Position numbers and translations under genes: made by a program
Assembly (NCBI RefSeq): GCF_001422405.1
Contig: NZ_LMMV01000001.1
Location: forward strand, 187,275-251,274
Length of the DNA: 64,000 nt
Direction: 5' to 3'
Source of the DNA: Pseudorhodoferax sp. Leaf267
GTDB taxonomy: Bacteria; Pseudomonadota; Gammaproteobacteria; Burkholderiales; Burkholderiaceae_C
The notes under the pieces: model-generated
What the model was told of the DNA's origin: nothing
Databases searched by the model: none
The model's input: the letters and a program-made list of their open reading frames with translations, nothing else
Shown: positions 1 to 15,495 of the stretch, piece by piece
How positions within the stretch are numbered: position 1 is the first letter of the stretch
Layout: each line of letters opens with the position of its first letter

Positions 1-444
1 CTGCTGGTGTTCGTGACCGATGTGCACAGCCTGGGCCTGAAGAACACCGAAGGCCTGCTGCTCACCACCAGCTGGGACTGGAACCTGGACGACGCCAGCC
101 GCGCCTTCGGCAAGAAGTTCTTCGACAAGGTCAAGCGCATGCCGACGGACATCCAGGCCGCCGACTACTCCGCCACCATGACCTACCTGAAGGCCGTGCA
201 GGCGACCAAGACGCTGGACGCCGACAAGATCATGGAATACATCAAGAAGACGCCGATCGACGACTTCTACGCCAAGGGCGTGGTGCGCCCCGACGGCCGC
301 TTCGTGCACGACATGTACCTCATGCAGGTCAAGTCGCCAGCCGAGTCCAAGCAGCCCTGGGACTACTACAAGGTCGTGACCAAGCTCAAGGGCGACGAGG
401 TCTACACGACCAAGGCCGAGAGCAAGTGCGCGCTGTGGAAGTGA
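1..444 (+). CDS. ABC transporter substrate-binding protein, C-terminal part (partial)
   Basis: Only the last 147 codons lie in the window; the reading frame is open from base 1, so the start lies upstream. The protein is the C-terminal lobe of a periplasmic binding protein of the branched-chain amino acid/amide (HAAT, Peripla_BP_6) type. It matches the C-terminus of the next gene almost position for position: both contain DVHSLGLKNTEGLLLTTSWDW and KKTPIDDFYAKG, and both end in CALWK. I judge the two roughly 80% identical by eye. The stop lies 8 bases before the ATG of the second copy, so the two are a tandem duplication and very probably cotranscribed with livH and livM. Substrate unknown. 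Confidence 0.93.
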   Translation: MLVFVTDVHSLGLKNTEGLLLTTSWDWNLDDASRAFGKKFFDKVKRMPTDIQAADYSATMTYLKAVQATKTLDADKIMEYIKKTPIDDFYAKGVVRPDGRFVHDMYLMQVKSPAESKQPWDYYKVVTKLKGDEVYTTKAESKCALWK

Positions 445-452
445 GCTCGCGC

Positions 453-1643
453 ATGGTCAAGCCCGCCCTGGTGCTGGCGCTGGCCGCCGCGCTGGCCGTC
501 GGCGCCCAGGCCCAGCAGCCCGACAAGGTGCGCATCGGCTTCATCACCGACATGTCGAGCAACTACTCGGACGGCGAGGGCAAGAACGGCGCGCTGGCGA
601 TCCAGATGGCCATCGACGACTTCGGCGGCCAGGTCAATGGCCTGCCCATCGAGCTGCTGACGCTGGACCACCAGCACAAGCCCGACCTCGCAGCCACCAA
701 GGCGCGCGAGTGGATCGACACGCAAAACCTGTCCATGCTGTTCGGCGGCACCAACTCCAGCGTGGCGCTGGCGCTCGCCAAGGTGGCGCAGGACAAGAAG
801 CGCGTGTACTTCGTGAACGGCGCCGGCACTTCGGCGCTGACCAACGAGCAGTGCAGCCCCTACACCGTGCACTACGCTTACGACTCTGTGGCGGTGGCGC
901 GCGGCACCAGCGGCGCCGTGGCCGCGCAGGGCGGCAAGACCTGGGCATTCCTGACGGCCGACTACGCTTTCGGCACGGCCATGGAGGCCGATGCCACCAA
1001 GGTCATCATGAAGTCCGGCGGCCAGGTGATCGCCAGCGTCAAGCACCCGCTCAACGCGTCCGACTTCTCGTCCTTCCTGCTGCAGGCGCAGAACTCCAAG
1101 GCGCAGATCCTAGGCCTGGCCAACGCGGGCGGCGACCTGATCAATTCGGTCAAGGCGATCCGCGAGTTCGGCGTGAACAAGAACATGAAGACGGCCGCCA
1201 TGCTGATCTTCCTGAGCGACGTCCACAGTTTGGGCCTGAAGAACACCGAGGGCCTGCTGCTGACCACGAGCTGGGACTGGAACCTGAACGAGGCCAGCCG
1301 CGCGTTCGGCCACAAGTTCTTCGCCAAGACGCGCCGCATGCCCACCGACCTGCAGGCCGCCGACTACTCGGCCACCATGACCTACCTGAAGGCCGTGCAG
1401 GCTGCCAGGACGGTCGATGCCGACGCGGTGATGGCGCAGATCAAGAAGACGCCGATCGACGACTTCTACGCCAAGGGCAGCGTGCGCGCCGACGGCCGCT
1501 ACGTGCACGACATGTACCTCATGCAGGTCAAGTCGCCGGCCGAATCCAAGGAGCCCTGGGACTACCTGAAGGTCGTCTCCAAGCTCAAGGGCGAGGACCT
1601 GTTCACAACCAAGGCCGAGTCGCGCTGCGCGCTGTGGAAATGA
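453..1643 (+). CDS. ABC transporter substrate-binding protein (branched-chain amino acid/amide type)
   Basis: A 396-aa periplasmic ligand-binding protein. The ATG at 453 gives a clear Sec signal peptide (MVKPALVLALAAALAVGAQAQ, cleavage after AQA). A longer GTG start at 426 would overlap the preceding stop and bury the signal, so I reject it. The mature part begins QPDKVRIGFITDMSS, typical of Peripla_BP_6 proteins that feed LivH/LivM permeases. It is the second of two paralogous copies and lies 19 bases before livH. Two binding proteins on one permease set suggest two related ligands or dosage. In this family, relatives called amide/urea or aromatic-acid binding proteins are common, so the ligand cannot be named from sequence. 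Confidence 0.93.
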   Translation: MVKPALVLALAAALAVGAQAQQPDKVRIGFITDMSSNYSDGEGKNGALAIQMAIDDFGGQVNGLPIELLTLDHQHKPDLAATKAREWIDTQNLSMLFGGTNSSVALALAKVAQDKKRVYFVNGAGTSALTNEQCSPYTVHYAYDSVAVARGTSGAVAAQGGKTWAFLTADYAFGTAMEADATKVIMKSGGQVIASVKHPLNASDFSSFLLQAQNSKAQILGLANAGGDLINSVKAIREFGVNKNMKTAAMLIFLSDVHSLGLKNTEGLLLTTSWDWNLNEASRAFGHKFFAKTRRMPTDLQAADYSATMTYLKAVQAARTVDADAVMAQIKKTPIDDFYAKGSVRADGRYVHDMYLMQVKSPAESKEPWDYLKVVSKLKGEDLFTTKAESRCALWK

Positions 1644-3554: not shown

Positions 3555-4709
3555 TCAGGCGGGCACCACCGCCTCACCCAGGTTCAGCATCAGCCGGTTG
3601 GCCCAGGCGAAGATGGCCACGGCATGCACCAGGTCCAGCAACTCCAGGCCCGACAGGCCGGCAGCGCGCAGCGGCTGCAGTTGTGCGGCGCCGAACGCTG
3701 CCGGTGACACCGTCAGGTCGATGGACGCCTGCACGATGGCCCGCTCGCGCGCCGTCGTGCCTGCGCCCCGTGGCTCGGTGAACACCTGGGCGATCACGTC
3801 GTTGCGCTTGGCCAGCTGCTCGAAGCGCTGGGCATGCACCGCACAGCAGTACACGCAGCCGTTCACGCGCGAGACCACGGCGCTGGCCAGTTCGCGCTCG
3901 GCGCGCGACAGGCCGCCCGGTGCGTACATGATGGCGTTGAAGACGATGGAGCGCTGCTCCAGGATCTCGGGCTGCTGCACCAGCGTCAGGTAGTAGTCGC
4001 TGCTCTTGGCCTTGGGGTGGCTGGTCTCCAGGATCTTGAGCTGCAACGGGCTGGCCTGGGCCAGGTCCAGCACCGGCAGCCAGGCCTTCCAGTCCAGGCT
4101 CTCGCTGGTGTAGCCGTTGATGCGCAGCGGCTCGCCGGGCTCGGGCAGATTGGCCGGGTGCACGAACGGGGCGTCGCCGGCCGCAGGGGGCGCCACCGCC
4201 GCCTGCGCATCACCCAGCGCTGCGATGGCCTGCAGGCCGGCCACCACGCGCAGCTGGTAGGCGGTGAAGGCGATCAGCTGCGCCAGGGCGATGACGGCCG
4301 GCGTGTCCAGGCCGGCCGCGGGCAGGCGCAGCAGGGCGTCGCGGTCGCCTTCGACCGGGCGCTCGGCCAGCAGGCGCGCATAGGCCAGGATCGCGTCCAG
4401 CCGTGCATCGCCCGTTGCCGGCGCACCGGCCAGCGCCGCCTGCTCGCCCGGCGTGAGGCCATCGAGCGACAGCAGCCGCGCGCGGTAGTGGGCCTGCAGC
4501 GCCTGGCTGCCGGCCAGCTCCACGATGGCCAGCGCGGCCAGCAAACGCTCGGCCAGCGACAGGCCGGGCAGGGCCGGGTCGAACAAGCCGTCATAGCTGC
4601 CCTGCGTGGCGCTGACCACCTTGTCGCGCTGGTGGCGCAGGGCGTGCGTCGCACTGTCGGGTGCCAGGGGCACGAGCTGGTCGATCAGGTCGCGGGAAGG
4701 GGTGGTCAT
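3555..4709 (-). CDS. Fused CMD-domain / AhpD-like alkylhydroperoxidase protein
   Basis: A 384-aa protein with two carboxymuconolactone decarboxylase/AhpD-type helical domains in tandem. Residues about 1-170 resemble the family I know as CMD domain protein, Avi_7170 type, and lack a Cys pair. Residues about 190-384 resemble the Avi_7169 type and carry the redox motif CVYCCAVHAQ (CxxC followed by His) expected for peroxidase/disulfide chemistry. In the relatives I recall, these are two separate adjacent genes, so this looks like a fusion. The ATG at 4709 overlaps the stop of the upstream hydrolase (ATGA), and the gene is the last of a nine-gene operon. It probably detoxifies peroxide made by the operon's flavoprotein or acts on its product (inference). 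Confidence 0.85.
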   Translation of the reverse strand: MTTPSRDLIDQLVPLAPDSATHALRHQRDKVVSATQGSYDGLFDPALPGLSLAERLLAALAIVELAGSQALQAHYRARLLSLDGLTPGEQAALAGAPATGDARLDAILAYARLLAERPVEGDRDALLRLPAAGLDTPAVIALAQLIAFTAYQLRVVAGLQAIAALGDAQAAVAPPAAGDAPFVHPANLPEPGEPLRINGYTSESLDWKAWLPVLDLAQASPLQLKILETSHPKAKSSDYYLTLVQQPEILEQRSIVFNAIMYAPGGLSRAERELASAVVSRVNGCVYCCAVHAQRFEQLAKRNDVIAQVFTEPRGAGTTARERAIVQASIDLTVSPAAFGAAQLQPLRAAGLSGLELLDLVHAVAIFAWANRLMLNLGEAVVPA

Positions 4710-6013
4710 GGCGAGGTCCTCAGGTGCTGGGTGGCCTGTTGCAGGAAGTCGCGCACGGCCGACCACGAGGCTTCGTCGGCGTGCGCGTTCGGGGCCGGCG
4801 CGCCGCCCGTGGTGCTCAGCCGGCCGGAGACCGGGTGCGCGTACACGAGCTGCGTCGTCGGCACGGTGGGAAAGACGATGGAATGCCCGGCGCCTTCGAA
4901 ATCCAGATGCCGGACGGGCCAGGCATGGCGATGGGCGGCCAGCCGTTCGGCCACCATGCGGCCATACAGGCTGGACGGCCAGGAGCCGTCGTCGCTGGCC
5001 GAGAGCAGCAGCACCGGCCCGCGGATGCGCTCCACCCGGATGCGCGCGCGCTCCACGGCGTCCGCATCCTGCAGCGCCGTCAGCAGCGCGTGGGCATGGC
5101 GGCGCGGCTCGGGGCCGTGGTCCCAGGGCGCCCAGGTCGCCGTGCGGTTGTGCTCCCACAGGTGCGGCAACGGCTCACCGCGCAAGATCCAGGCCGGGCC
5201 GTTGCGGCTGTCCGGGCCGTTGGCCGGGTTGCAGGCGTTCTGCGCGCTGTGCACCACGGCGCCCGGCACATAGCCGATCACGGCCGAGACCAGCTCCGGG
5301 AACAGCGAGGCCAGCAGCAGCACCAGCTCGCCGCCGCGCGACTGGCCCGACAGCGCGACGAAGCCGCCCAGGGGGCGGACCTCGCCGTGCAGCCACTGCA
5401 GCGCGCTCTCGAAGTACTCGAGGTGGGTGTCCGAGATGTGGTCGGGCCGGCCAGGCGACTTGAAATAGCCCAGCGCCAGCGCCGCATAGCCGTGCGAGGC
5501 GTAGAGCGCTGCGCGCGGCTCGTTGATGCCACCGCCCGAGCCGTTCAGCACCATCACGGCCGGGTGCGGGCCCGCGCCCGCCGGCAGGAAGAGCGTGCCC
5601 GAGAGCCCCTGCGCGCGCACCTCGCGCCGCGTCACGCCGGGACCGGCCAGGCGCTGCACCAAGCTGGCCTGCCAGACGCCGCCATCGGCGCGGCGCAGGG
5701 TCAGCGTCGTATGCAGCGGCGCGGCCGGTTCGGCGGCGAACACCTCGCGCGGCGCACCCGGCGTCTGCGGCGCCTGCGCCCACAGCAGGCCCATGGGCGC
5801 CACGCCCGTGTAGCTGCCCGCGAGCGGCGCATCGCGCGTCAGGTCGACCGTGCCATCGGCATCGGCGCGCAGCCGCACCTCGGCCGTCCAGGCGATGCCC
5901 GGGCCACGCACCGTGTGGCTGGCGAGCAGGACTTCCTCGCCGGGCACCAGCCCTTCGGCCGCTATGCGGCGCGGCACGTCGATCAGCGCGTCGGCCGGCG
6001 TGGCATGCAGCAT
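4706..6013 (-). CDS. Acyl-CoA thioesterase/BAAT-type alpha/beta hydrolase
   Basis: A 435-aa protein built like bile-acid-CoA:amino acid N-acyltransferase/acyl-CoA thioesterases. It has an N-terminal Ig-like domain (about residues 1-135) and a C-terminal alpha/beta-hydrolase domain. The nucleophile elbow GQSRGG supplies the catalytic Ser, GSGGG is the oxyanion-hole loop, and a late GAGHSI motif provides the His. No signal peptide is seen, so it should be cytoplasmic. It starts 4 bases after the binding-protein stop and overlaps the CMD gene by 4 bases. In this peptide/opine-type uptake operon it most likely hydrolyses an acyl thioester, ester or amide of the imported compound. The substrate cannot be read from sequence. 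Confidence 0.85.
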   Translation of the reverse strand: MLHATPADALIDVPRRIAAEGLVPGEEVLLASHTVRGPGIAWTAEVRLRADADGTVDLTRDAPLAGSYTGVAPMGLLWAQAPQTPGAPREVFAAEPAAPLHTTLTLRRADGGVWQASLVQRLAGPGVTRREVRAQGLSGTLFLPAGAGPHPAVMVLNGSGGGINEPRAALYASHGYAALALGYFKSPGRPDHISDTHLEYFESALQWLHGEVRPLGGFVALSGQSRGGELVLLLASLFPELVSAVIGYVPGAVVHSAQNACNPANGPDSRNGPAWILRGEPLPHLWEHNRTATWAPWDHGPEPRRHAHALLTALQDADAVERARIRVERIRGPVLLLSASDDGSWPSSLYGRMVAERLAAHRHAWPVRHLDFEGAGHSIVFPTVPTTQLVYAHPVSGRLSTTGGAPAPNAHADEASWSAVRDFLQQATQHLRTSP

Positions 6014-6017
6014 GGGC

Positions 6018-7592
6018 TTACTTGCCCGTCCTGGTGACCTGCATGGCCGTCGTGCGGTCGCTCAGCAGCGGCTCGACCTTCAGGCCCTTCTTGGCAGCCC
6101 AGATGTTCTGGTAGTGGAACAGCGGGATGTGGCCCACGTCGTCGGTGACCAGCTTGGCGGCGTGGCGGAACGTGGCCTCGCGGCGGCGCGCGTCGAACTC
6201 GACCGTGGCCGCGTCCAGCGCCTTGTCCACGTGCTCGTTGCTGTAGCGGCCCCAGTTGTTGATACCGCGACCGCGCTTGGGGTCGTGCGTGGCCAGGGTC
6301 TGCAGCAGGCCGTAGCCCGCCTCGCCCGTTCCGTTGCCCCAGGCGATCACGCTGACGGCGTACTCGTTCTTGCCGGCACGTCCCGAATACACCGACCACG
6401 GCACGACCTCGACCTTGGTCTTCACGCCGATGCGCGACCAGAACTGCGCCACGGCCTGCACCGTCTCGGGCGCCTGCGGGTAGCGGTCGCCCGGCACGTG
6501 GATGCTGATCTGGAATCCCTGCGGGTAGCCGGCATCGGCCAGCAGTTTCTTGGCCTGGTCGGCGCTGTAGGCGATGTCCTTGATGTCGGGGTTGTAGCCG
6601 AAGGTGTTCTTCGGCATCCACTGGTTTGCCTCGGTCACCGTGCCCTGCAGCACGCGGTCGACGATGGCCTTGCGGTTGATGGCCACCGACAGCGCCTGGC
6701 GCACGCGCACGTCCTGCAGCGGGTTCTTCTCCAGCGGCTTGCCGGCGTTGTCTGTGATGAACTCGTTGGCGCCCGCGCGCAGCGTGGGCTGCAGCAGTAG
6801 CACGCGCAGGCCGGGGTAGGTGTAGACGCTGACGGACGGCGTCTTGCGCAGCTTGTCCACGTCGGTCACGGCCACCTTGTCGATCACGTCCACGTCGCCG
6901 GCCAGCAGCGCGGCGGTGCGTGCCGCGCCGTTGTTGATGAAGCGGTAGGTCACGCGGTCCCAGATGGGCTTGGGGCCCCAGTAGTCCGGGTTGCGCTCGA
7001 ACACCGTGCGGTCGCCGGGCGTGTACGAGATGAACTTGTAGGGGCCGGTGCCGACCACGGCGCGCCCGGCGTTGTAGTCGGCCGTCTGCGACTTCTCGCC
7101 CACGTGCTTGCTCACGATGTAGACCGAGGCGATCTCCAGCGGCAGCATGGGGTTGGGGCCGGTGGTCTTGATGATGACGGTCTGCGCGTCCTTGGCCGTC
7201 ACCGACTCCACCGTGCGCAGCGAGCCCGAGTAAGACGCCACCGAGCCCGCCACGCTGCGCGCGCGCTGGAACGAATACAGGATGTCGTCGGCCGTCATGG
7301 GCTTGCCGTCCTGCCACTTGATGTCGGTGCGCAGCTTGAATTCCCAGGTCTTGTCGTCCAGCGCCTTCCAGCTGGCGGCCAGGCCCGGGTCGAGCTTGCC
7401 GCCGTCGCGCGAGGCCACGATGGAATCCCAGAAGTGCAGCGCCAGCGAGCGGTCGCCCGCATGGTTGTTCAGCTGCGGGTCGACCGAGGAGATCGGGTCG
7501 GCGAAGGCGATCGACAGGTTCTGCTGCGCCTGTGCGCCGGTCGCGGCCAGCAGGGCGGCCGTCAGCAGGGGAAGGAGGGAGCGGTTGCGCAT
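6018..7592 (-). CDS. Peptide/nickel-type ABC transporter substrate-binding protein
   Basis: A 524-aa family 5 extracellular solute-binding protein. The ATG at 7592 gives the Sec signal MRNRSLLPLLTAALLAATGAQAQ and is preceded by an AAAGGA ribosome site. The mature protein shows family hallmarks such as DPQLNNHAGD, LAASWKALDDKTWEFKLR and IKWQDGKPMTADDILYSFQR. It resembles the KPN_01854 family of binding proteins that I associate with CMD/AhpD and flavoprotein genes (recalled association, not checked). It lies 38 bases after the second ATPase gene, the largest gap in the operon, consistent with a separate strong ribosome site for an abundant protein. The ligand may be a peptide, opine or other oligomer-like compound. 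Confidence 0.92.
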   Translation of the reverse strand: MRNRSLLPLLTAALLAATGAQAQQNLSIAFADPISSVDPQLNNHAGDRSLALHFWDSIVASRDGGKLDPGLAASWKALDDKTWEFKLRTDIKWQDGKPMTADDILYSFQRARSVAGSVASYSGSLRTVESVTAKDAQTVIIKTTGPNPMLPLEIASVYIVSKHVGEKSQTADYNAGRAVVGTGPYKFISYTPGDRTVFERNPDYWGPKPIWDRVTYRFINNGAARTAALLAGDVDVIDKVAVTDVDKLRKTPSVSVYTYPGLRVLLLQPTLRAGANEFITDNAGKPLEKNPLQDVRVRQALSVAINRKAIVDRVLQGTVTEANQWMPKNTFGYNPDIKDIAYSADQAKKLLADAGYPQGFQISIHVPGDRYPQAPETVQAVAQFWSRIGVKTKVEVVPWSVYSGRAGKNEYAVSVIAWGNGTGEAGYGLLQTLATHDPKRGRGINNWGRYSNEHVDKALDAATVEFDARRREATFRHAAKLVTDDVGHIPLFHYQNIWAAKKGLKVEPLLSDRTTAMQVTRTGK

Positions 7593-7630
7593 GCGGGTCC
7601 TTTCGTGCGGGAGGAGAGTGGTGAAACGGT

Positions 7631-8670
7631 TCAGGCCGGGTCGTCCAGGTGGCAGGCGCTGGCGTGCTGGAAGGCGATGCCGCGCAGCCGCGGCACCTCG
7701 GTCTGGCAGCGCGGCATGGCCTGCGGGCAACGCGGGTGGAAGTGGCAACCTGAGGGCGGCGCGAGCGGGCTCGGGATCTCGCCACGGATCGGCGTGAAGC
7801 GCGTGCGCCGCGCGCCGATGCGCGGGATCTCGTCCAGCAGCGCGCGCGTGTAGGGGTGGTGCGGCCGCGCGAACAGCTCGGCCACCGGCGCGCTCTCGAC
7901 CACGCGGCCCAGGTACATCACCACCACGCGGTCGCTCACATGTTCGATCACGCCCAGGTCGTGGCTGATGAACAGATAGGCCAGGCCCAGCTGCGCGCGC
8001 AGGTCCATGAACAGGTTCAGGATCTGCGCCTGGATCGACACGTCCAGCGCGGCCACGGCCTCGTCGCAGACCAGCATGGCCGGCTGCACGGCCAGCGCGC
8101 GGGCGATGCCGATGCGTTGGCGCTGCCCGCCGCTGAACTGGTGCGGATAGCGGTGGCGCAGGCTGGCGTCCAGGCCCGCGCGTTCGAGCTGGGCGCAGAC
8201 GTAGTCGTCTTCGCCGGCGGCGTCGGTCAGACCGTGCAGCCGCGCCGCCTCGCCCACGATGCGGGCCACGCGCAAGCGCGGGTTCAGGCTGCCGAACGGG
8301 TCCTGGAACACCATCTGCACGCGCAGCCGCGCGGCCAGCCGGGCGCGGGCGTCCAGGGTGGCCAGCGGCTGTCCGTTGACCAGGACTTCGCCGTCGCTGG
8401 GCGCGAGCAGCCCGGCCGCGACGCGGCCCAGCGTGGACTTGCCGCAGCCCGATTCGCCGACCAGGCCGACCACCTCGCCGGGGCGTACGGCCAGGTCCAC
8501 CTGGTCCAGCGCGTGGGTGATGGCCGGTGGATGCGCCAGGCCGAAGCGGCGCAGGCCGCGCTCCAGCAGGCCGTCGGCACGCTCGCCGAAACGCATGGAG
8601 ATCTGGCGCAGGTCGACCAGCGGCGTGCTGCCTTCGGAAGGCGGGGGCATGGGACTGGCGGGCAGGGCGC

Positions 8671-8674
<4 letters not shown>
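7631..8674 (-). CDS. Dpp/Opp-type ABC transporter ATP-binding protein (DppF-like)
   Basis: A 347-aa ATPase. Walker A is GESGCGKST (residues 73-81), followed by the Q-loop QMVFQDPFGSLNPR, signature FSGGQRQRIGIARAL, Walker B MLVCDEAVAALD and H-loop FISHDL. The C-terminal oligopeptide-transporter extension contains GCHFHPRCP. I choose the GTG at 8674 because it overlaps the upstream stop as GTGA, the same junction style used elsewhere in this operon; an ATG at 8650 is the alternative. It pairs with the following gene in this list to form the two nucleotide-binding domains of the importer. Confidence 0.92.
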
Positions 8675-9647
<973 letters not shown>

Positions 9648-9651
<4 letters not shown>

Positions 9652-10550
9652 TTCTGCAACCTCGGGTTCAACACATCGCGCAGGTGGTCGCCCACCAGGT
9701 TGATCGCGACGATGGTGGCCAGCAGCGCCAGGCCGGGGAACACGCTGATCCAGTATTCGTTGGACAGCAGGTACTGGTAGCCGTTGGAGATCAACAGCCC
9801 CAGCGAGGGCTCGGTGATCGGCACGCCCAGCCCCAGGAAAGACAGCGTGGCCTCCAGCGTGATCGCGCGCGCCACCTGCAGCGCGCCGATCACCAGGAGC
9901 GGCGGCAGGCAGTTCGGCAGGATGTGGCCGACCAGGATGCGCCAGGGCGGGATGCCCTGCCCACGTGCCGCGTCCACGTATTCGCGCCGCGTCTCCACCA
10001 GCGCCTGGCCGCGCGCCGTGCGGGCGTAGTAGGCCCATTCCAGCAGCACCAGCGTGAGCACCACGTTGCCGATGCCCTTGCCCAGGTAGGCCAGGATCAT
10101 CAGCGCCATGAGGATGGTGGGGAAGGACAGCAGCAGATCCACCAGGCGCATCAGCAGCGCGTCGACACGGCCACCGGCGTAGGCGGCCAGCAGGCCGACC
10201 AGCGTGCCGACGACGGCGGCGATCAGCGCCGAGCCCACGCCCACCAGCAGGCTGATGCGCAGGCCGTAGACGATGGCCGAGTACAGGTCGCGGCCCTGGC
10301 CGTCCGTGCCCAGCCAGTAGGTGAACGTGCCTTCGCCATTGGCCGCGCCGGGCTTCAGGCGCGCGTCCAGCACGTCCAGCTGCATCAGGTCGTAAGGGTT
10401 CTGCGGCGTGATCCAGGGCGCGGCCAGCGCGGCCAGCACCACGAGCACCAGCACGACGAGGCCGAACACGGCAGTGCGCGAGCGCATGAAGTCGGTGGCG
10501 GTGCGCCACCACAGGGAATGTTCGCGCCCGGGGCGCACGGTGCGCGTCAC
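9648..10550 (-). CDS. Dpp/Opp-type ABC transporter permease (DppC-like)
   Basis: A 300-aa inner-membrane permease. It has the N-terminal DppC-type segment followed by the diagnostic HWLGTD-like motif YWLGTDGQGRDLYSAIVYGLR, and an EAA-type loop around EYVDAARGQGIPPWRILVGHILPN. About six membrane helices are visible. The GTG at 10550 gives a GTGA overlap with the upstream permease stop; an internal ATG (MRSRTAVFGL) is possible but would leave a gap. The C-terminus (LNPRLQK) overlaps the DppD-like gene by 4 bases. Confidence 0.92.
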
Positions 10551-11521
10551 TTGGCACCCTCCAGGCGAACCCGTGGGTCCAGCAGGCGGTACAGCACGTC
10601 GACCACCAGGTTCAATGTCACGAAGATCACCACCACCACCATGAGATAGGCCACGACCACGGGCCGGTCCAGCGCATTGATGCTGTCCAGGATCAGCTTG
10701 CCGGCGCCGGGCCAGGCGAAGATGGTCTCCGTCACCACGGCATAGGCGATGGTCGAGCCCAGCTCCAGGCCCAGCACCGTCACCAGCGGGATCAGCGTGT
10801 TGCGCAGCACGTGCACCAGCATCACGCGCGCGGGCGACAGGCCTTTGGCCCGCGCGAACTTCACGTAGTCCTGCGGCAGCACCTCGCGCACGCCGGCGCG
10901 GGTCAGGCGCAGCACCATGGAAATCTTGAACAGCGCCAGGTTGAAGGCCGGCAGGATGAGGTGCACCAGCCCGTCGGCCGTGAGCCAGGACCATTGCACG
11001 CCGAACAGTGCCCGCGTCTCGCCACGCCCGCCGGCCGGCAGCCAGCCCAGCTGCACGCTGAACACCATGATCAGCATCAGCGCCACCCAGAAGGCCGGCA
11101 GCGAGAAGCCCACGATACTGGTCGTCATGACCGCGCGCGACAGCCAGTGCTCCGGCCGCATGCCGGCGAACAGGCCCAGCGGCACGCCCAGCACCACGGC
11201 CAGGATCAAGGCGGCCACGGCCAGCTCCATGGTGGCCGGCAGGCGGGCCAGGATCAGCCGGATCGCGTCCTCGTGGTAGACGAAGCTGGTGCCCAGGTTG
11301 CCGCGTACGGCGCCCTCCACGAAGGCCAGGTACTGGCGCCACAGCGGCTGGTCCAGCCCGAGGCGGGCGATGGCGGCGGCCCGCTCGGCCTGGTTCATGT
11401 CGTCGCCGATCAGGATGTCCACCGGGTTGCCGATGGCGTGCATGCCGATGAAGACGATCAGCGTCATGGCGATGACGACCAGCAGCGCCTGGCCCAGGCG
11501 GCGCAGCAGCCAGCCGGTCAC
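10547..11521 (-). CDS. Dpp/Opp-type ABC transporter permease (DppB-like)
   Basis: A 324-aa inner-membrane permease of the DppB type. The first helix is LGQALLVVIAMTLIVFIGMHAIGNP, followed by the large periplasmic loop with RLGLDQPLWRQY, and the EAA loop DYVKFARAKGLSPARVMLVHVLRN. The start is taken as GTG 11521, overlapping the flavoprotein stop as GTGA. An upstream ATG at 11566 would overlap the neighbour by 49 bases and adds only a basic leader. It forms the channel with the DppC-like partner. Confidence 0.92.
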   Translation of the reverse strand: MTGWLLRRLGQALLVVIAMTLIVFIGMHAIGNPVDILIGDDMNQAERAAAIARLGLDQPLWRQYLAFVEGAVRGNLGTSFVYHEDAIRLILARLPATMELAVAALILAVVLGVPLGLFAGMRPEHWLSRAVMTTSIVGFSLPAFWVALMLIMVFSVQLGWLPAGGRGETRALFGVQWSWLTADGLVHLILPAFNLALFKISMVLRLTRAGVREVLPQDYVKFARAKGLSPARVMLVHVLRNTLIPLVTVLGLELGSTIAYAVVTETIFAWPGAGKLILDSINALDRPVVVAYLMVVVVIFVTLNLVVDVLYRLLDPRVRLEGAK

Positions 11522-12996
11522 TTGGCGGGCCCTTCGGCGTAATCGGGAAAGCTGGCTTCGGTCCACTCATGGCCCTGCAGCTCGGGCTCGGCATAGTGCT
11601 GCATGGCCTCGAAGTGGGCCGGCATGTCCTCGGCCAGCAGCTGGGCGGCCAGGCCACGTGCCAGGCGCTGCGCGCCGTCGGTGATCTGCGGGATGTCGCC
11701 CGCGCCCGCACCCTGCGAGAGGGCGGCCGCGTAGTTGTAGCAGTGCACGCGCTCCAGGCCCGGGCAGCTGCCGGGCGTCTTCTGCTGGAACTCGAAGAGC
11801 GGCCCCAGGTCGGGCGATTCGGCCAGCTCGGCATCGTCTTCGCCCACGGGCGCGGTGAAGCGGTCCTGCCACAGGCGCACATGCGGCTGCAGCGCGGCGA
11901 ACTCGGGGCGCTGCGCCCAGTCGGTGCGAAAGCCGGTGCAAAAGACCAGGTGGTCGGCCGCCAGCGGGCCCTTGGCCGTCTCCACGCGCAGCGTGCCGTC
12001 GGCCAGCACGCTGGCGCCCAGCGCGCCGGCACCCAGGTGGAAGAAGGCGTTCGCATGGCGCGACACGCGCAGCGTGCTGCCCTGCGGCGGCGGCACCTGC
12101 TGCACGTTCAGGAAATGCCGAAAGCGCCACTTCCACTCATCGGAGAGCGTGGCGAAGCCGTGCGACATGCCCGGGCTGCCGGCGCCCTTGCCCTTGTTGA
12201 TGCGTGGCAGTTCCTGGCGGCGGATCAGCAGGTCCACCCGCGCAGCCCCGGCCTCCAGCGCCGTGGCGGCCGCGTCCATGGCCGAGGCACCGCCGCCGAC
12301 CACGGCCACGCGCCAGCCGCGCAGCTTGGCGCCATCCCACACGTGCGAGGAGTGGTCCCAGCGGTCGCGCGGCAGTTGCTGCGCCCAGTCGGGCACCCAG
12401 GGGCCGCCCAGGCCGTCGCGGCCCGTGGCCAGCACCACGTGGCGCGCCAGCACCTGGTAGGGCGCGCCGCCCGCGGCATCGTCCACCAGGTCGAGTTGCA
12501 CCACGCCGTCGGCGCGCGGGCGCACGGCCTGCACACGCTGGCGGTTGCGCACGTCCAGCCCCAGCACCCGGCGGTACCAGCGCAGATAGTCCATCCACTG
12601 CAGGCGCGGGATCTTGTCCAGCGCATGCCAGGCGACCAGGCCAAACTGCGCCTCGAACCAGGCGCGAAAGGTCAGCGCCGGCAGGCCCAGCGCCGGGCCC
12701 GTGAGTTCTTTCGGCGAGCGCAGCGTCTCCATGCGCGCCGTGGTCGCCCATGGCCCTTCGAAGCCCGCCGGCGACTGGTCGAACACGGGCGCGCGCAAGC
12801 CCATGTGCGCGAGCGAGGCCGCCAGCGCCAGGCCGGCCATGCCGCCACCGACGACGGCCACGTCCAGCACCGGCTGGCCGTCGCGCTTGCTGGGCGGCAC
12901 CCAGGCCTTGGCCGGCAGGCCGAGCCACTGCAGGTCCTGCTGCAGCCGCTGTTCCAGTGCGGGCAGGCCGGCGGGGGTCGAGGGGGATGCGTTCAT
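11518..12996 (-). CDS. FAD/NAD(P)-binding oxidoreductase (flavin monooxygenase-like)
   Basis: A 492-aa flavoprotein with two Rossmann nucleotide-binding motifs: VVGGGMAG near residue 53 for FAD, and VVGGGASA in the middle for NAD(P). This is the arrangement of flavin-containing monooxygenases and related lone NAD(P)-binding oxidoreductases. The region FCTGFRTDW matches the conserved ATG-like FAD-interacting strand near the C-terminus. No signal peptide or transmembrane segment is seen. It is the second gene of the operon, overlapping LysR (ATGA) and the DppB-like permease (GTGA). It probably oxygenates or oxidises the imported compound, upstream of the hydrolase and the CMD/AhpD protein (inference). 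Confidence 0.85.
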   Translation of the reverse strand: MNASPSTPAGLPALEQRLQQDLQWLGLPAKAWVPPSKRDGQPVLDVAVVGGGMAGLALAASLAHMGLRAPVFDQSPAGFEGPWATTARMETLRSPKELTGPALGLPALTFRAWFEAQFGLVAWHALDKIPRLQWMDYLRWYRRVLGLDVRNRQRVQAVRPRADGVVQLDLVDDAAGGAPYQVLARHVVLATGRDGLGGPWVPDWAQQLPRDRWDHSSHVWDGAKLRGWRVAVVGGGASAMDAAATALEAGAARVDLLIRRQELPRINKGKGAGSPGMSHGFATLSDEWKWRFRHFLNVQQVPPPQGSTLRVSRHANAFFHLGAGALGASVLADGTLRVETAKGPLAADHLVFCTGFRTDWAQRPEFAALQPHVRLWQDRFTAPVGEDDAELAESPDLGPLFEFQQKTPGSCPGLERVHCYNYAAALSQGAGAGDIPQITDGAQRLARGLAAQLLAEDMPAHFEAMQHYAEPELQGHEWTEASFPDYAEGPAK

Positions 12997-13991
12997 GGGG
13001 CGCCGGTCGATGGGGGTGGAGGTTGCAGGCCGGCATGGGCCGCCTGCAGCAGGTCGGCGTGCGCCGCGGGGGGGTGCTGCTGAAAGCCCGGCAGCGCGGT
13101 CGCCGCGGACAGCAAAGCGTCGGACAGCGTCTGTGCGCGCCGCGCCAGCGGCCGGCCCTGCGGCACGATCACGCCGAAGAAGAAGGGCACGTCGGTGTCC
13201 AGCGGGCGCACGCAGACGCCGTCCAGCGGCAGGCCGTGTGCGCTCAAGGGGTCGAGCAGCGCGATGCCCAGGCCCGCGCGCACCATGGCCATGGCGTTGA
13301 CGGACGAGTTGGTCTCGATCGCGTCGGTGGGCTTGTTGGCGGCCGGCGCGCGCGCCTGCGCCAGCACGGCGTCGATGCGGTGGCGCAGCCGATAGGGGTT
13401 GGCCAGCGTGACGATGCGGCGCCGCGCCAGTGCGGCCAGCGGCACCTGGGGCGCGGCGGCGAGCGGGTCGCCGTCGGCCAGCACGGCCACGCAGGGCGCC
13501 TGGCCGATCCACAGCAGCTGCAGGCCGCGGTGCTCCAGCGGCAGGCTGGCCGCGCCCAGCTGCACGGCGCCGCTCAGCACGGCCTGCAGCACGCGCTCGG
13601 GCGACGCGCTCTGCAGCCGCACGGGCGAGGCGCCGGTCGCGTCCTCCAGTGCACGCAGGGCCTGGGGCAGCAGGCCCACGGCGACGGCCGAGGTGGCGGC
13701 CAGCAGCAGCGGCTCGCCGCCCTGGGCGATCTCCAGCGTGCGCGCCTGCAACTGGCGCCAGCTGCCGAGCAGGTGCTCGACCTCCTCGTACAGCAGGAAG
13801 CCCTCCTGCGTGGGCGTCACGCGAGGGCCGTGCCGCGTGAACAGCGCATAGCCGGTGGCGGCCTCCAGTTCATGCACCAGGCGCGTGACGGCGGGCTGCG
13901 AGCGCTCCAGCAGGCGCGCGGCACCGGTCACGCTGCCCGTGGACATCACGGCGGCAAAGGCTTCGAGCTGGCGGATTTCCATCGTGTTCAT
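12993..13991 (-). CDS. LysR-type transcriptional regulator, first gene of the uptake/oxidation operon
   Basis: A 332-aa LysR regulator. The N-terminal winged helix (MEIRQLEAFAAVMSTGSVTGAARLLERSQPAVTRLVHELE) is canonical, followed by a LysR substrate-binding domain. Three closely spaced ATGs (13994, 13991, 13982) are possible starts; I take 13991. Unlike the usual divergent arrangement, this regulator is transcribed in the same direction as its presumed targets and overlaps the flavoprotein gene by ATGA. A perfect 9-bp dyad covers its start codons, so it is probably autoregulated together with the whole operon. The C-terminal 20 residues are Pro/Ala-rich. Confidence 0.92.
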   Translation of the reverse strand: MNTMEIRQLEAFAAVMSTGSVTGAARLLERSQPAVTRLVHELEAATGYALFTRHGPRVTPTQEGFLLYEEVEHLLGSWRQLQARTLEIAQGGEPLLLAATSAVAVGLLPQALRALEDATGASPVRLQSASPERVLQAVLSGAVQLGAASLPLEHRGLQLLWIGQAPCVAVLADGDPLAAAPQVPLAALARRRIVTLANPYRLRHRIDAVLAQARAPAANKPTDAIETNSSVNAMAMVRAGLGIALLDPLSAHGLPLDGVCVRPLDTDVPFFFGVIVPQGRPLARRAQTLSDALLSAATALPGFQQHPPAAHADLLQAAHAGLQPPPPSTGAP

Positions 13992-14071: not shown

Positions 14072-15130
14072 CTACAGCCGCAAACGCTGGGTGTAGCCGG
14101 TCATTTCTAGGTAGCCGCGGCCCACATGGCGGCCTTCCGCGTCGAACAGGTCCGACACGCCTTCCCAGTAGATCGCGCCCGTGGACGAGCGGCTGTCCAG
14201 CTCCTGATCGTCCAGCAGGCTCCTGACCGTGAAGCGGCCGGCCGGCGTCTGCACCGTCCATTCGACGGGGTAGCGCGCCTGGCTCAGCGGGCTGGTCCAC
14301 CAGCGCCGCGCCGTGAACACCACTTCGCCGTCGCGGAAGATGCGCGCCGCGGCCCCGGGCGCACGGAACGAGCCGCCGTTCCACAGCGCTGACCCATCGG
14401 CGCGGCGCAGGTGGAAGGCCGTCAGCGCGCTGCCGTCGGTGAGGTTCATGCCGATCCAGTCCCAGCCCACGGCGTCGGGGTGCATCAGGGCCTGGCTCCA
14501 CTCGTGGTCCAGCCAGGCGCGGGCGGGCGTCTGCTTGTCGATGGCGAAGCGCTGGCCCTTCAGTTGCAGGTGGCCGCTGGTCGCCAGCTGCGGCACGCTG
14601 TAGTAGTAGCTGGCCTGCTCGGGCTCAGGGCCTTTGCGCGACAGGCCGGCATCGCCCTGCAGCAGCAGCGGCTGCGTTTCGCGAAAGCGCAGGTGCAGGC
14701 CGAAGTCGGCACCGGGCAGCTCGGCCACCAGGTCCTGGCCCTCGCGCAGCAGGTGCCAGTCGTGCAGGCGGATTCCGGTGTCGGACTCATCGGCCAGCGC
14801 GATGCCGAAGCCCTCGCGCGCGATGCGCTGGTCGTGCCAGAGCTTGCCGCCCTGCAGGTCGGTCAGCGCTGCATGCGCGAACAGCAGTTGACGCGCGGCG
14901 AAGCGCGACTGCATGCCCTGGGTGGACGCCACGCGCGAGCGGAAGAAGGTGAGCTGGAAGCCGAAGCTGCGCGCGCCGCTCGTCGCATGGCCCGTGACGT
15001 ACCACCACTCGGTGCGGAAGTCCGGGTGGCTGCCCAGGTCGCGCGGGAACTGCAGCTGCAGGGGCACCAGCGCGCGGGCCTGCTGCGACAGCGCCAGGGC
15101 CGCCAGCAGCAGTGCGCGCCGTTGCAGCAT
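14072..15130 (-). CDS. AttH/CrtC-like lipocalin-type protein (carotenoid 1,2-hydratase superfamily)
   Basis: A 352-aa exported protein of the CrtC/AttH lipocalin-like superfamily. Evidence is the block FRTEWWYVTGHATSGARSFGFQLTFFR near the N-terminus, the WLDHEWSQ and GWDWIGMNL motifs in the middle, and YWEGVSDLFDAEGRHVGRGYLEMTGY at the end. The ATG at 15130 gives a short signal peptide (LLLAALALSQQARA). In many proteobacteria such genes follow an ATPase and an FtsX-type permease (attEFG-like order). Here that pair lies about 2 kb upstream on the same strand, with other genes between. It probably binds or modifies a hydrophobic compound at the envelope; carotenoid hydration itself is unlikely without other carotenoid genes. 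Confidence 0.87.
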   Translation of the reverse strand: MLQRRALLLAALALSQQARALVPLQLQFPRDLGSHPDFRTEWWYVTGHATSGARSFGFQLTFFRSRVASTQGMQSRFAARQLLFAHAALTDLQGGKLWHDQRIAREGFGIALADESDTGIRLHDWHLLREGQDLVAELPGADFGLHLRFRETQPLLLQGDAGLSRKGPEPEQASYYYSVPQLATSGHLQLKGQRFAIDKQTPARAWLDHEWSQALMHPDAVGWDWIGMNLTDGSALTAFHLRRADGSALWNGGSFRAPGAAARIFRDGEVVFTARRWWTSPLSQARYPVEWTVQTPAGRFTVRSLLDDQELDSRSSTGAIYWEGVSDLFDAEGRHVGRGYLEMTGYTQRLRL

Positions 15131-15495
15131 CACGTGGCCAGCGCCTGGGCGATGCGCCGCTGCGCCGGCCCGCCATGGCCGCGCTGCGTGGCCACCCAGC
15201 CGGCGTCGTGCAAGCCAGTCAGGCAGCGCGCGCCGGCACCGCACAGCAGCGACAGGATGGAGCCTTGCTGCCCGGCCGCGCGGCTGAGCAGGCGGGCCAG
15301 GCAGGCCGCGCGCACGGCCGTGGAGCCGCTGCAGGCCGCGACGAGGGTCGTGCCCCCGCGCGCCGTGCCATTCACGCGCGCGACGAGGCACGGCGGGCGT
15401 GCGAGCCAGTGCTTCAGGCTGCTGCCCGCGTGCGTGCCGGCGCCGCGCTGCGCATGGGCTGCGATGCGAGCGCGGGTGGTGCAGAGCCAGGTCAT
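15130..15495 (-). CDS. Unknown 121-aa protein coupled to the AttH-like gene
   Basis: A 121-aa reading frame starting MTWLCTTRARIAAHAQRG and ending RRIAQALAT. I do not recognise it. Support for coding: its stop and the next ATG share a base (TGATG), which allows translational coupling. Codon third positions are about 93% G/C, which suits this genome. It fills what would otherwise be a 390-base hole in a tightly packed strand. It is rich in Arg, Ala and Cys (seven Cys), with no signal peptide or membrane helix. The C-terminal part (LTGLHDAGWVATQRGHGGPA) could be a small helix-turn-helix-like fold, but this is weak. Confidence 0.55.
   Translation of the reverse strand: MTWLCTTRARIAAHAQRGAGTHAGSSLKHWLARPPCLVARVNGTARGGTTLVAACSGSTAVRAACLARLLSRAAGQQGSILSLLCGAGARCLTGLHDAGWVATQRGHGGPAQRRIAQALAT

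What the first reader, a model, noticed from the sequence alone, without database searches (positions are those of the whole stretch)
3555..13991. Nine-gene operon pairing a Dpp-type importer with a flavoprotein, a BAAT-like hydrolase and a fused CMD/AhpD protein
Seen: nine minus-strand genes with five or six ATGA/GTGA overlaps and a maximal gap of 38 bases. They comprise an importer with two permeases, two ATPases and a family 5 binding protein, plus FAD/NAD(P) oxidoreductase, BAAT/acyl-CoA thioesterase-type hydrolase and a CMD-AhpD protein, all headed by LysR. Known: similar clusters, with KPN_01854-type binding proteins and Avi_7169/Avi_7170-type proteins, occur in scattered Gram-negatives without an assigned substrate (recalled). 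Inference: a self-contained uptake, oxidation and cleavage pathway for an acylated or amide-linked compound, with peroxide or disulfide chemistry at the end. No catalytic partner is missing except a luciferase-like monooxygenase found in some relatives.
Basis: partly seen in the sequence, partly recalled or inferred. Interest (0 to 1): 0.8.

Follow-up and report, generated by a model that had tools for sequence, protein, structure and literature searches.

The report
Uptake operon built around swappable importers
A nine-gene bacterial operon that appears to import an unknown small compound, cut it, and oxidise it with a flavin enzyme paired with a thiol-redox protein; relatives keep the oxidising pair but exchange the importer, which suggests an uncharacterised, modular degradation route.

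Summary
In detail: nine same-strand genes, six 4-base overlaps, gaps of 4 and 38 bases. The operon is conserved in other genera. Its core is not the importer but a pair: a class B-type flavoprotein (predicted fold closest to ornithine/lysine N-hydroxylases) and a CMD/AhpD protein with a CxxC...H site. In 398 genomes drawn evenly from the phylum, 13 of 15 core flavoprotein loci have CMD/AhpD in the neighbourhood and 0 of 13 outgroup loci do. The importer changes around this pair: Opp/Dpp, TctC, polar amino-acid ABC, polyamine-type ABC, a second Opp, none. In the two Opp types the hydrolase differs with the importer. Best reading: import, hydrolysis, NAD(P)H/O2 heteroatom oxygenation, thiol-redox handling. 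Substrate unknown; no activity shown; several loci lack the hydrolase. A Sinorhizobium relative (identity inferred) is reported as a co-regulated, nitrogen-responsive eight-gene group (PMC3596328).

The parts
12993..13991 (-). LysR-family regulator, first gene, same strand as the operon
   Evidence: PF00126/PF03466; a LysR like it within 10 kb of the flavoprotein in 76 of 78 distinct OppA loci
11518..12996 (-). FAD/NAD(P)H class B-type flavoprotein, putative monooxygenase
   Evidence: PF13434, PF13738, PF07992 over cut-off; AlphaFold model pLDDT 81.9; of the 50 Foldseek matches shown, ranks 1-46 are ornithine/lysine/cadaverine N-hydroxylases
10547..11521 (-). DppB-type permease (GTG start)
   Evidence: PF00528, PF19300
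9648..10550 (-). DppC-type permease (GTG start)
   Evidence: PF00528, PF12911
8671..9651 (-). DppD-type ATPase
   Evidence: PF00005, PF08352
7631..8674 (-). DppF-type ATPase (GTG start)
   Evidence: PF00005, PF08352
6018..7592 (-). family 5 periplasmic binding protein; N-terminus looks like a signal peptide (by eye)
   Evidence: PF00496 E 5.1e-90; below the cut-off of all 12 NCBIfam models that it matched
4706..6013 (-). BAAT/acyl-CoA thioesterase-type serine hydrolase
   Evidence: PF04775 + PF08840; Ser225 in GQSRGG, Asp341, Asp342 and His377 identical in 63 of 63 rows (four loci are in that set twice)
3555..4709 (-). CMD-AhpD fusion with CVYCxxxH redox motif in its second half
   Evidence: TIGR01926 230.7 bits, cut-off 81.8; CxxCxxxH in 105 of 105 distinct relatives that cover that stretch; model pLDDT 91.5

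Best explanation
The operon encodes an import-and-oxidise route for a small acyl-, ester- or amide-linked compound. The binding protein and DppBCDF take the conjugate up. The BAAT-type serine hydrolase cuts it inside the cell. The released amino-acid-like core is oxygenated on a heteroatom (most likely an amine nitrogen, less likely sulfur) by the NAD(P)H- and O2-dependent class B-type flavoprotein. The CxxC...H site of the CMD-AhpD protein then reduces or otherwise handles the reactive product or the peroxide that leaks from the flavin. LysR senses the compound. Shown by sequence and comparison: gene order, conservation, the flavoprotein plus CMD/AhpD core, importer exchange, a hydrolase that differs with the Opp type, conserved catalytic residues. 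Inferred: every chemical step and the substrate class.
For: Core pairing: 15 core flavoprotein places in an even phylum sample, 13 with CMD/AhpD in the neighbourhood, against 0 of 13 outgroup places. The 60 core rows stand apart from 9 outgroup rows with support 100/99 in a 69-row tree; importer labels on the core need 15 changes where 7 would be the least. CMD_Avi_7170-type loci of a like sample sit with this flavoprotein (12), beside a luciferase-like monooxygenase (14), as YciW (4), or with neither (4), of 34. Cassette swap: Rhodoferax-named MAG L096 has FAD 72% like the window, but Opp permease and ATPase genes 62-71% like Ketogulonicigenium (40-48% to the window) and that system's alpha/beta-hydrolase instead of BAAT, plus an M24 peptidase otherwise found only in L193 among the loci searched. 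BAAT in 58 of 78 distinct OppA loci and 0 of 37 other core loci; the other hydrolase in 3 of 3 OppK loci and 0 of the rest. Flavoprotein fold. Amine or amino-acid hints: polar amino-acid ABC, an ABC system that PMC3596328 calls polyamine-type, D-amino acid dehydrogenase after CMD at three TctC loci, octopine/nopaline-type dehydrogenase near six loci (Pfam tested for four). Published: eight S. meliloti genes that fit the relative L149 are co-regulated with nitrogen status.
Against: 16 of the 18 Pseudomonas loci with this importer have no BAAT and are not cut there. TctC, amino-acid and polyamine-type versions have neither of the two hydrolases. Core flavoproteins without CMD/AhpD: L188 and L195 of the sample, and plasmid locus L152. 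One CMD/AhpD fusion, L058, has neither flavin enzyme within its 19 kb. The flavoprotein model is unsure at residues 82-101 (pLDDT under 50), where N-hydroxylases hold their substrate (recalled). No NCBIfam model over cut-off names the flavoprotein and none matched the hydrolase. Nothing shows that O2 is used. L096 is one metagenome contig. The 80 named loci are the best 80 of 483 and over-represent close relatives.
Confidence: 0.5

Rival explanations
1. Organosulfur scavenging: the flavoprotein oxygenates a thioether or thiol and the CxxC partner reduces a sulfenic or sulfoxide product.
For: E. coli YciW, a distant relative of the fusion (28% over 337 columns), has a CysB-binding motif and its loss raises cysteine sensitivity (passages of the review PMC10821248, citing Kawano 2015, not seen). 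An IscS-like protein (just under the IscS cut-off) lies beside all ten Herbaspirillum loci held. An S/N-oxide reductase of the bisC family, below its cut-off, lies in one version, L193/L248.
Against: YciW lacks the CxxC. The sulfur-type neighbours are confined to single lineages. The Sinorhizobium version is reported with nitrogen status.
Confidence: 0.2
2. Redox defence: the flavoprotein is the NAD(P)H reductase of the CMD/AhpD protein (an AhpF- or YpdA-like role), not a monooxygenase.
For: Tight pairing; weak YpdA similarity (31.5 bits; rank 50).
Against: KPN clusters pair CMD/AhpD with a luciferase-like enzyme instead; fold nearest to N-hydroxylases; no invariant cysteine in the flavoprotein alignments; peroxide defence does not explain importers and hydrolases.
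Confidence: 0.14
3. Baeyer-Villiger route: a ketone is turned into an ester by the flavoprotein and the BAAT-type enzyme cuts that ester.
For: Class B-like flavoprotein and a serine hydrolase in one operon.
Against: The hydrolase differs with the importer type while the flavoprotein stays; many versions have no such hydrolase; the FxGxxxHxxxW fingerprint (recalled) is not seen by eye, only an invariant His215.
Confidence: 0.1
4. Uptake and recycling of an opine-type metallophore or siderophore.
For: N-hydroxylase fold; the binding protein's best NCBIfam score is a nickel-type SBP, far below cut-off; octopine-type dehydrogenases near six loci.
Against: No siderophore synthesis or receptor gene among the ten neighbour representatives annotated (other neighbour clusters were not annotated); TctC versions do not fit.
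Confidence: 0.04

Closest known systems
KPN_01854/KPN_01858/Avi_7169/Avi_7170-type clusters (TIGR04027-TIGR04030)
   Same: Opp/Dpp-type importer followed by a flavin monooxygenase and CMD + AhpD in the same order
   Different: Flavin enzyme is a class B-type FAD protein, not luciferase-like; binding protein outside TIGR04028; added BAAT hydrolase; CMD half just below and AhpD half well below the family cut-offs
Sinorhizobium meliloti SMb20278-SMb20285
   Same: LysR, importer, flavoprotein, CMD, AhpD; described as one co-regulated group in PMC3596328. That it is our L149 is inferred: the one match in pSymB of strain 1021 lies at 282957-285535 and the gene order fits
   Different: Polyamine-type importer, CMD and AhpD separate, no hydrolase
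E. coli YciW
   Same: CMD-AhpD relative, 28% identity over 337 columns
   Different: No CxxC, no flavoprotein beside it; neighbours are rnb, fabI and the sap operon
Ornithine/lysine N-hydroxylases (KtzI, PvdA, SidA)
   Same: Predicted fold, ranks 1-46 of 50 shown; PF13434 over gathering score
   Different: 15-19% identity; catabolic-looking context; residues 82-101 not modelled with confidence
Human acyl-CoA thioesterases ACOT2/ACOT4
   Same: BAAT-type hydrolase; the only two PDB sequence matches (3k2i, 3hlk)
   Different: Bacterial, in an uptake operon; an imported substrate is unlikely to be a CoA ester (inference)

Membership tests
TIGR04027-04030 cluster | binding protein over the TIGR04028 cut-off | tested here: not met
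   94.4 against 468.5 bits
TIGR04027-04030 cluster | luciferase-like monooxygenase TIGR04027 in the operon | tested here: not met
   no such match among the nine genes
TIGR04027-04030 cluster | CMD half over TIGR04029 cut-off | tested here: inconclusive
   99.2 against 100.75 bits
TIGR04027-04030 cluster | AhpD half over TIGR04030 cut-off | tested here: not met
   185.9 against 233.15 bits
AhpD-like peroxidase-related (TIGR01926) | score over cut-off and CxxCxxxH | tested here: met
   230.7 against 81.8; motif in 105 of 105 distinct relatives
AhpD-like peroxidase-related (TIGR01926) | peroxidase or disulfide activity | not testable with these tools
   needs assay
Class B flavoprotein monooxygenase | two dinucleotide-binding glycine motifs on one chain | tested here: met
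   G50, G52, G55, G234 and S238 invariant in 39 rows, G236 at 90% or more
Class B flavoprotein monooxygenase | O2- and NAD(P)H-dependent oxygenation | not testable with these tools
   needs assay
Baeyer-Villiger monooxygenase | FxGxxxHxxxW(P/D) fingerprint (recalled) | tested here: not met
   only His215 invariant, by eye
N-hydroxylating monooxygenase | PF13434 over gathering score | tested here: met
   56.3 against 21.3 bits, residues 128-265 only
N-hydroxylating monooxygenase | C-terminal D-x3-(L/F)-ATGY motif (recalled) | tested here: inconclusive
   D348, T354, G355 invariant, F356 nearly so; TGF in place of TGY
BAAT/acyl-CoA thioesterase | both Pfam domains and Ser-Asp-His residues | tested here: met
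   PF04775, PF08840; 63 of 63 rows, four loci twice
BAAT acyltransferase proper | Cys nucleophile (recalled) | tested here: not met
   Ser in 63 of 63 rows

The most novel reading that the evidence does not exclude
CMD/AhpD is a portable second half for flavin monooxygenases: two unrelated flavin enzymes (class B FAD type here, luciferase-like FMN type in KPN clusters) feed the same thiol-redox partner, giving an undescribed two-step oxygenate-then-thiol-process chemistry onto which bacteria bolt interchangeable importer-plus-hydrolase cassettes; E. coli YciW, next to fabI and the sap transporter, would be a relic of it.
Probability: 0.3. Interest if true: 0.75.

Novelty: new variant of a known kind. 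Interest (0 to 1): 0.5.

Why it matters
It ties several 'hypothetical equivalog' families and orphan importers into one testable module, offers importer and hydrolase type as a handle on the substrate, and links the cysteine-related but unsolved E. coli YciW to a larger family. The predicted fusion also aligns over its whole length with human Sestrin2 (TM 0.55 by query, 0.58 by target, rmsd 12, 12% identity), a loose likeness of the kind already drawn for YciW in PMC11429811 (passages).

Tried and rejected
Filing the operon under the KPN_01854 system: rejected on the binding protein score. Literature on the family names: no held paper contains TIGR04027-04030, KPN_01854 or Avi_7169/7170; two combined searches gave nothing; two searches listed papers that, by title and abstract start, are not about this module (listings only). 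C. glutamicum rings for TIGR04029 in the control set; a term search inside two C. glutamicum sulfur papers found no such genes, so the lead ended there. PDB sequence searches with the binding protein gave generic dipeptide, agrocinopine, heme and nickel relatives and name no ligand. The structure second look was not available. Opposite-strand ORF clusters (10, 11, 13, 17) were judged artefacts of G+C-rich sequence and dropped. The plasmid search found 330 records; I opened 11 regions: seven show CMD and AhpD near the flavoprotein, four do not (L152 of the core; L151, L154, L155 of the outgroup). Labels (OppA, TctC, OppK, outgroup and so on) were given by me from context and identity before the tree; seven of the 13 outgroup places of the phylum sample were not in the tree and rest on 32-44% identity. 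L058, L061 and L063-L065 have no label and are not in the tables. Four loci had been fetched twice (L041/L084, L042/L066, L043/L088, L044/L083); searches count them twice, once.
Full report
Observation. The nine genes lie on the minus strand between 3555 and 13991. Start and stop positions give six 4-base overlaps and two gaps, 38 and 4 bases. The genome has one place that matches the flavoprotein profile at E <= 1e-10 and one BAAT_C match.

Conservation. In 200 genomes of the family, the own genome included, 26 have a CMD-like match at E <= 1e-20. I fetched surroundings of 26 places outside the window. Of these 26, 21 have the flavoprotein next to CMD/AhpD, 3 are luciferase-type clusters (L063-L065), one (L058) has neither flavin enzyme, and one (L061) keeps importer, BAAT, CMD and AhpD but breaks off inside DppB. 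A scan of named genomes gave 483 relatives of the flavoprotein at a loose threshold, of which the best 80 were kept. They come from comamonads such as Pseudorhodoferax, Pseudacidovorax, Variovorax and Curvibacter, and from Achromobacter, Bordetella, Herbaspirillum, Pandoraea, Cupriavidus and Pseudomonas among others. Of 78 distinct loci labelled OppA, 74 hold all five importer genes and CMD/AhpD; four are cut by contig ends.

The core is a pair. In 398 genomes drawn evenly from the phylum the flavoprotein profile matched 28 places in 23 genomes at E <= 1e-60. I looked at all 28 (own window). Fifteen belong to the clade of the window protein and 13 to the outgroup. In the tree 60 core rows stand apart with support 100/99 from nine outgroup rows, six of them from this sample and three from plasmids; the other seven outgroup places were placed by identity alone. 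CMD/AhpD is present in 13 of the 15 (in L193 through the adjoining stretch L248, about 10 kb away on the same strand; in L190 divergent) and in 0 of the 13. The exceptions are L188 and L195. A like sample searched with the CMD family gave 34 loci in 29 of 398 genomes: 12 with this flavoprotein, 14 beside a luciferase-like monooxygenase, 4 YciW-type loci, 4 with neither. The luciferase-like enzyme is TIGR04027 at 557 bits in L063, the only one scanned.

The importer is exchangeable. On the tree the nine labels need 16 changes with the outgroup (least possible 8) and 15 without it (least possible 7). The labels were mine.

Hydrolase and importer. BAAT is in 58 of 78 distinct OppA loci and in 0 of the 37 other core loci; the Ketogulonicigenium-type alpha/beta-hydrolase is in 3 of 3 OppK loci and in 0 of the rest. 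Of the 20 OppA loci without BAAT, 4 are cut by contig ends and 16 are Pseudomonas that keep the rest; two other Pseudomonas loci have it. L096, a MAG named Rhodoferax, shows a swap: LysR, FAD and CMD are window-like (61, 72, 60%), but Opp genes, binding protein and hydrolase are closer to Ketogulonicigenium, with an M24 peptidase found otherwise only in L193. It is a single metagenome contig, so misassembly is not excluded. I infer that hydrolase and importer act on the same imported compound and that the pair acts on what is released. The 16 Pseudomonas loci speak against the hydrolase being indispensable.

The flavoprotein. Its model has mean pLDDT 81.9 with residues 82-101 under 50. Of the 50 Foldseek matches shown, ranks 1-46 are ornithine, lysine or cadaverine N-hydroxylases, 47-49 DiatB, 50 YpdA. 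By sequence profile the best solved matches are DiatB, other flavin monooxygenases and related FAD/NAD proteins, N-hydroxylases coming lower. Invariant positions across 39 rows include both dinucleotide motifs, His215, Asp348, Thr354 and Gly355, and no cysteine. I read it as a class B monooxygenase; N-hydroxylation is the likeliest, not a shown, reaction.

The CMD-AhpD protein. Model pLDDT 91.5. The best matches are AhpD-like structures over about 165 residues (6k40, TM 0.76 by target); the whole length aligns with Sestrin2 at TM 0.55-0.58 but rmsd 12. CxxCxxxH is present in 105 of 105 distinct relatives that cover it. In the window protein only the second half carries it. Passages of PMC11429811 already compare YciW and a fused CMD protein with Sestrin.

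Hints to the substrate. D-amino acid dehydrogenase (subfamily model over cut-off for the two scanned) follows CMD in three TctC loci. An IscS-like protein lies beside all ten Herbaspirillum loci held, and an S/N-oxide reductase relative in L193/L248. Hydantoinase/oxoprolinase-type genes neighbour CMD/AhpD in L153 and L247. A DSBA-like protein is in three loci. These fit an amine- or thioether-bearing amino-acid-like core but do not name it.

Published expression. PMC3596328, of which I read passages and section 17, reports eight S. meliloti genes, SMb20278-SMb20285, as one group: LysR, potFHIG-like ABC, a pyridine nucleotide-disulphide oxidoreductase, a hypothetical protein and a CMD protein. 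It stands under genes up on high nitrogen, is repressed under nitrogen limitation in a glnBglnK mutant and raised in a glnD mutant. That this is our relative L149 is inferred from gene order and from the single match in pSymB of strain 1021; the record carries no annotation there. PMC3484140 (one passage) lists SMb20284 among possible polyamine transport proteins.

Verdict. What is new here is the oxidising pair as the fixed part, the exchange of importers, in one case with the hydrolase, around it, and the substitution of one flavin enzyme type for another beside CMD/AhpD. In searches I found no paper that describes this module; searches found the Sinorhizobium expression report. Most subscription papers are outside that library.

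Noticed in passing
L157 8981-16001; L249-L252: E. coli K-12 and relatives carry yciW downstream of the sap Opp-type operon and fabI on one strand (ycjD between in K-12); in L252 yciW follows the sap-like genes without a fabI match between. The order resembles importer - oxidoreductase - CMD/AhpD.
   Followed up: partly
window 3555-4709: Predicted whole-length shape aligns loosely with human Sestrin2 (TM 0.55-0.58, rmsd 12).
   Followed up: partly
window 7-1643: Two very similar branched-chain-type binding proteins in tandem, the first cut by the window start, followed by two BPD_transp_2 permeases that converge on the operon end.
   Followed up: no
window 14072-15220: CrtC/lipocalin-domain protein just upstream of LysR on the same strand.
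   Followed up: no
L151 6250-16810: An outgroup flavoprotein on a Rhizobium rhizogenes Ti plasmid sits with two luciferase-like monooxygenases, an ABC importer and an acyl-CoA dehydrogenase, without annotated CMD/AhpD in the stretch.
   Followed up: no
L061 15937-18426: DppB cut short and no flavoprotein beyond it, next to a gene that looks phage-like by eye.
   Followed up: no
L146 7511-13476: In Rhizobium etli CFN 42 CMD and AhpD stand divergent from LysR-flavoprotein and beside an Lrp regulator and a class V aminotransferase.
   Followed up: no
L148 13488-15080: The lone binding protein of the Pseudoroseomonas version is 60% like the OppA-type binding protein of L061.
   Followed up: no
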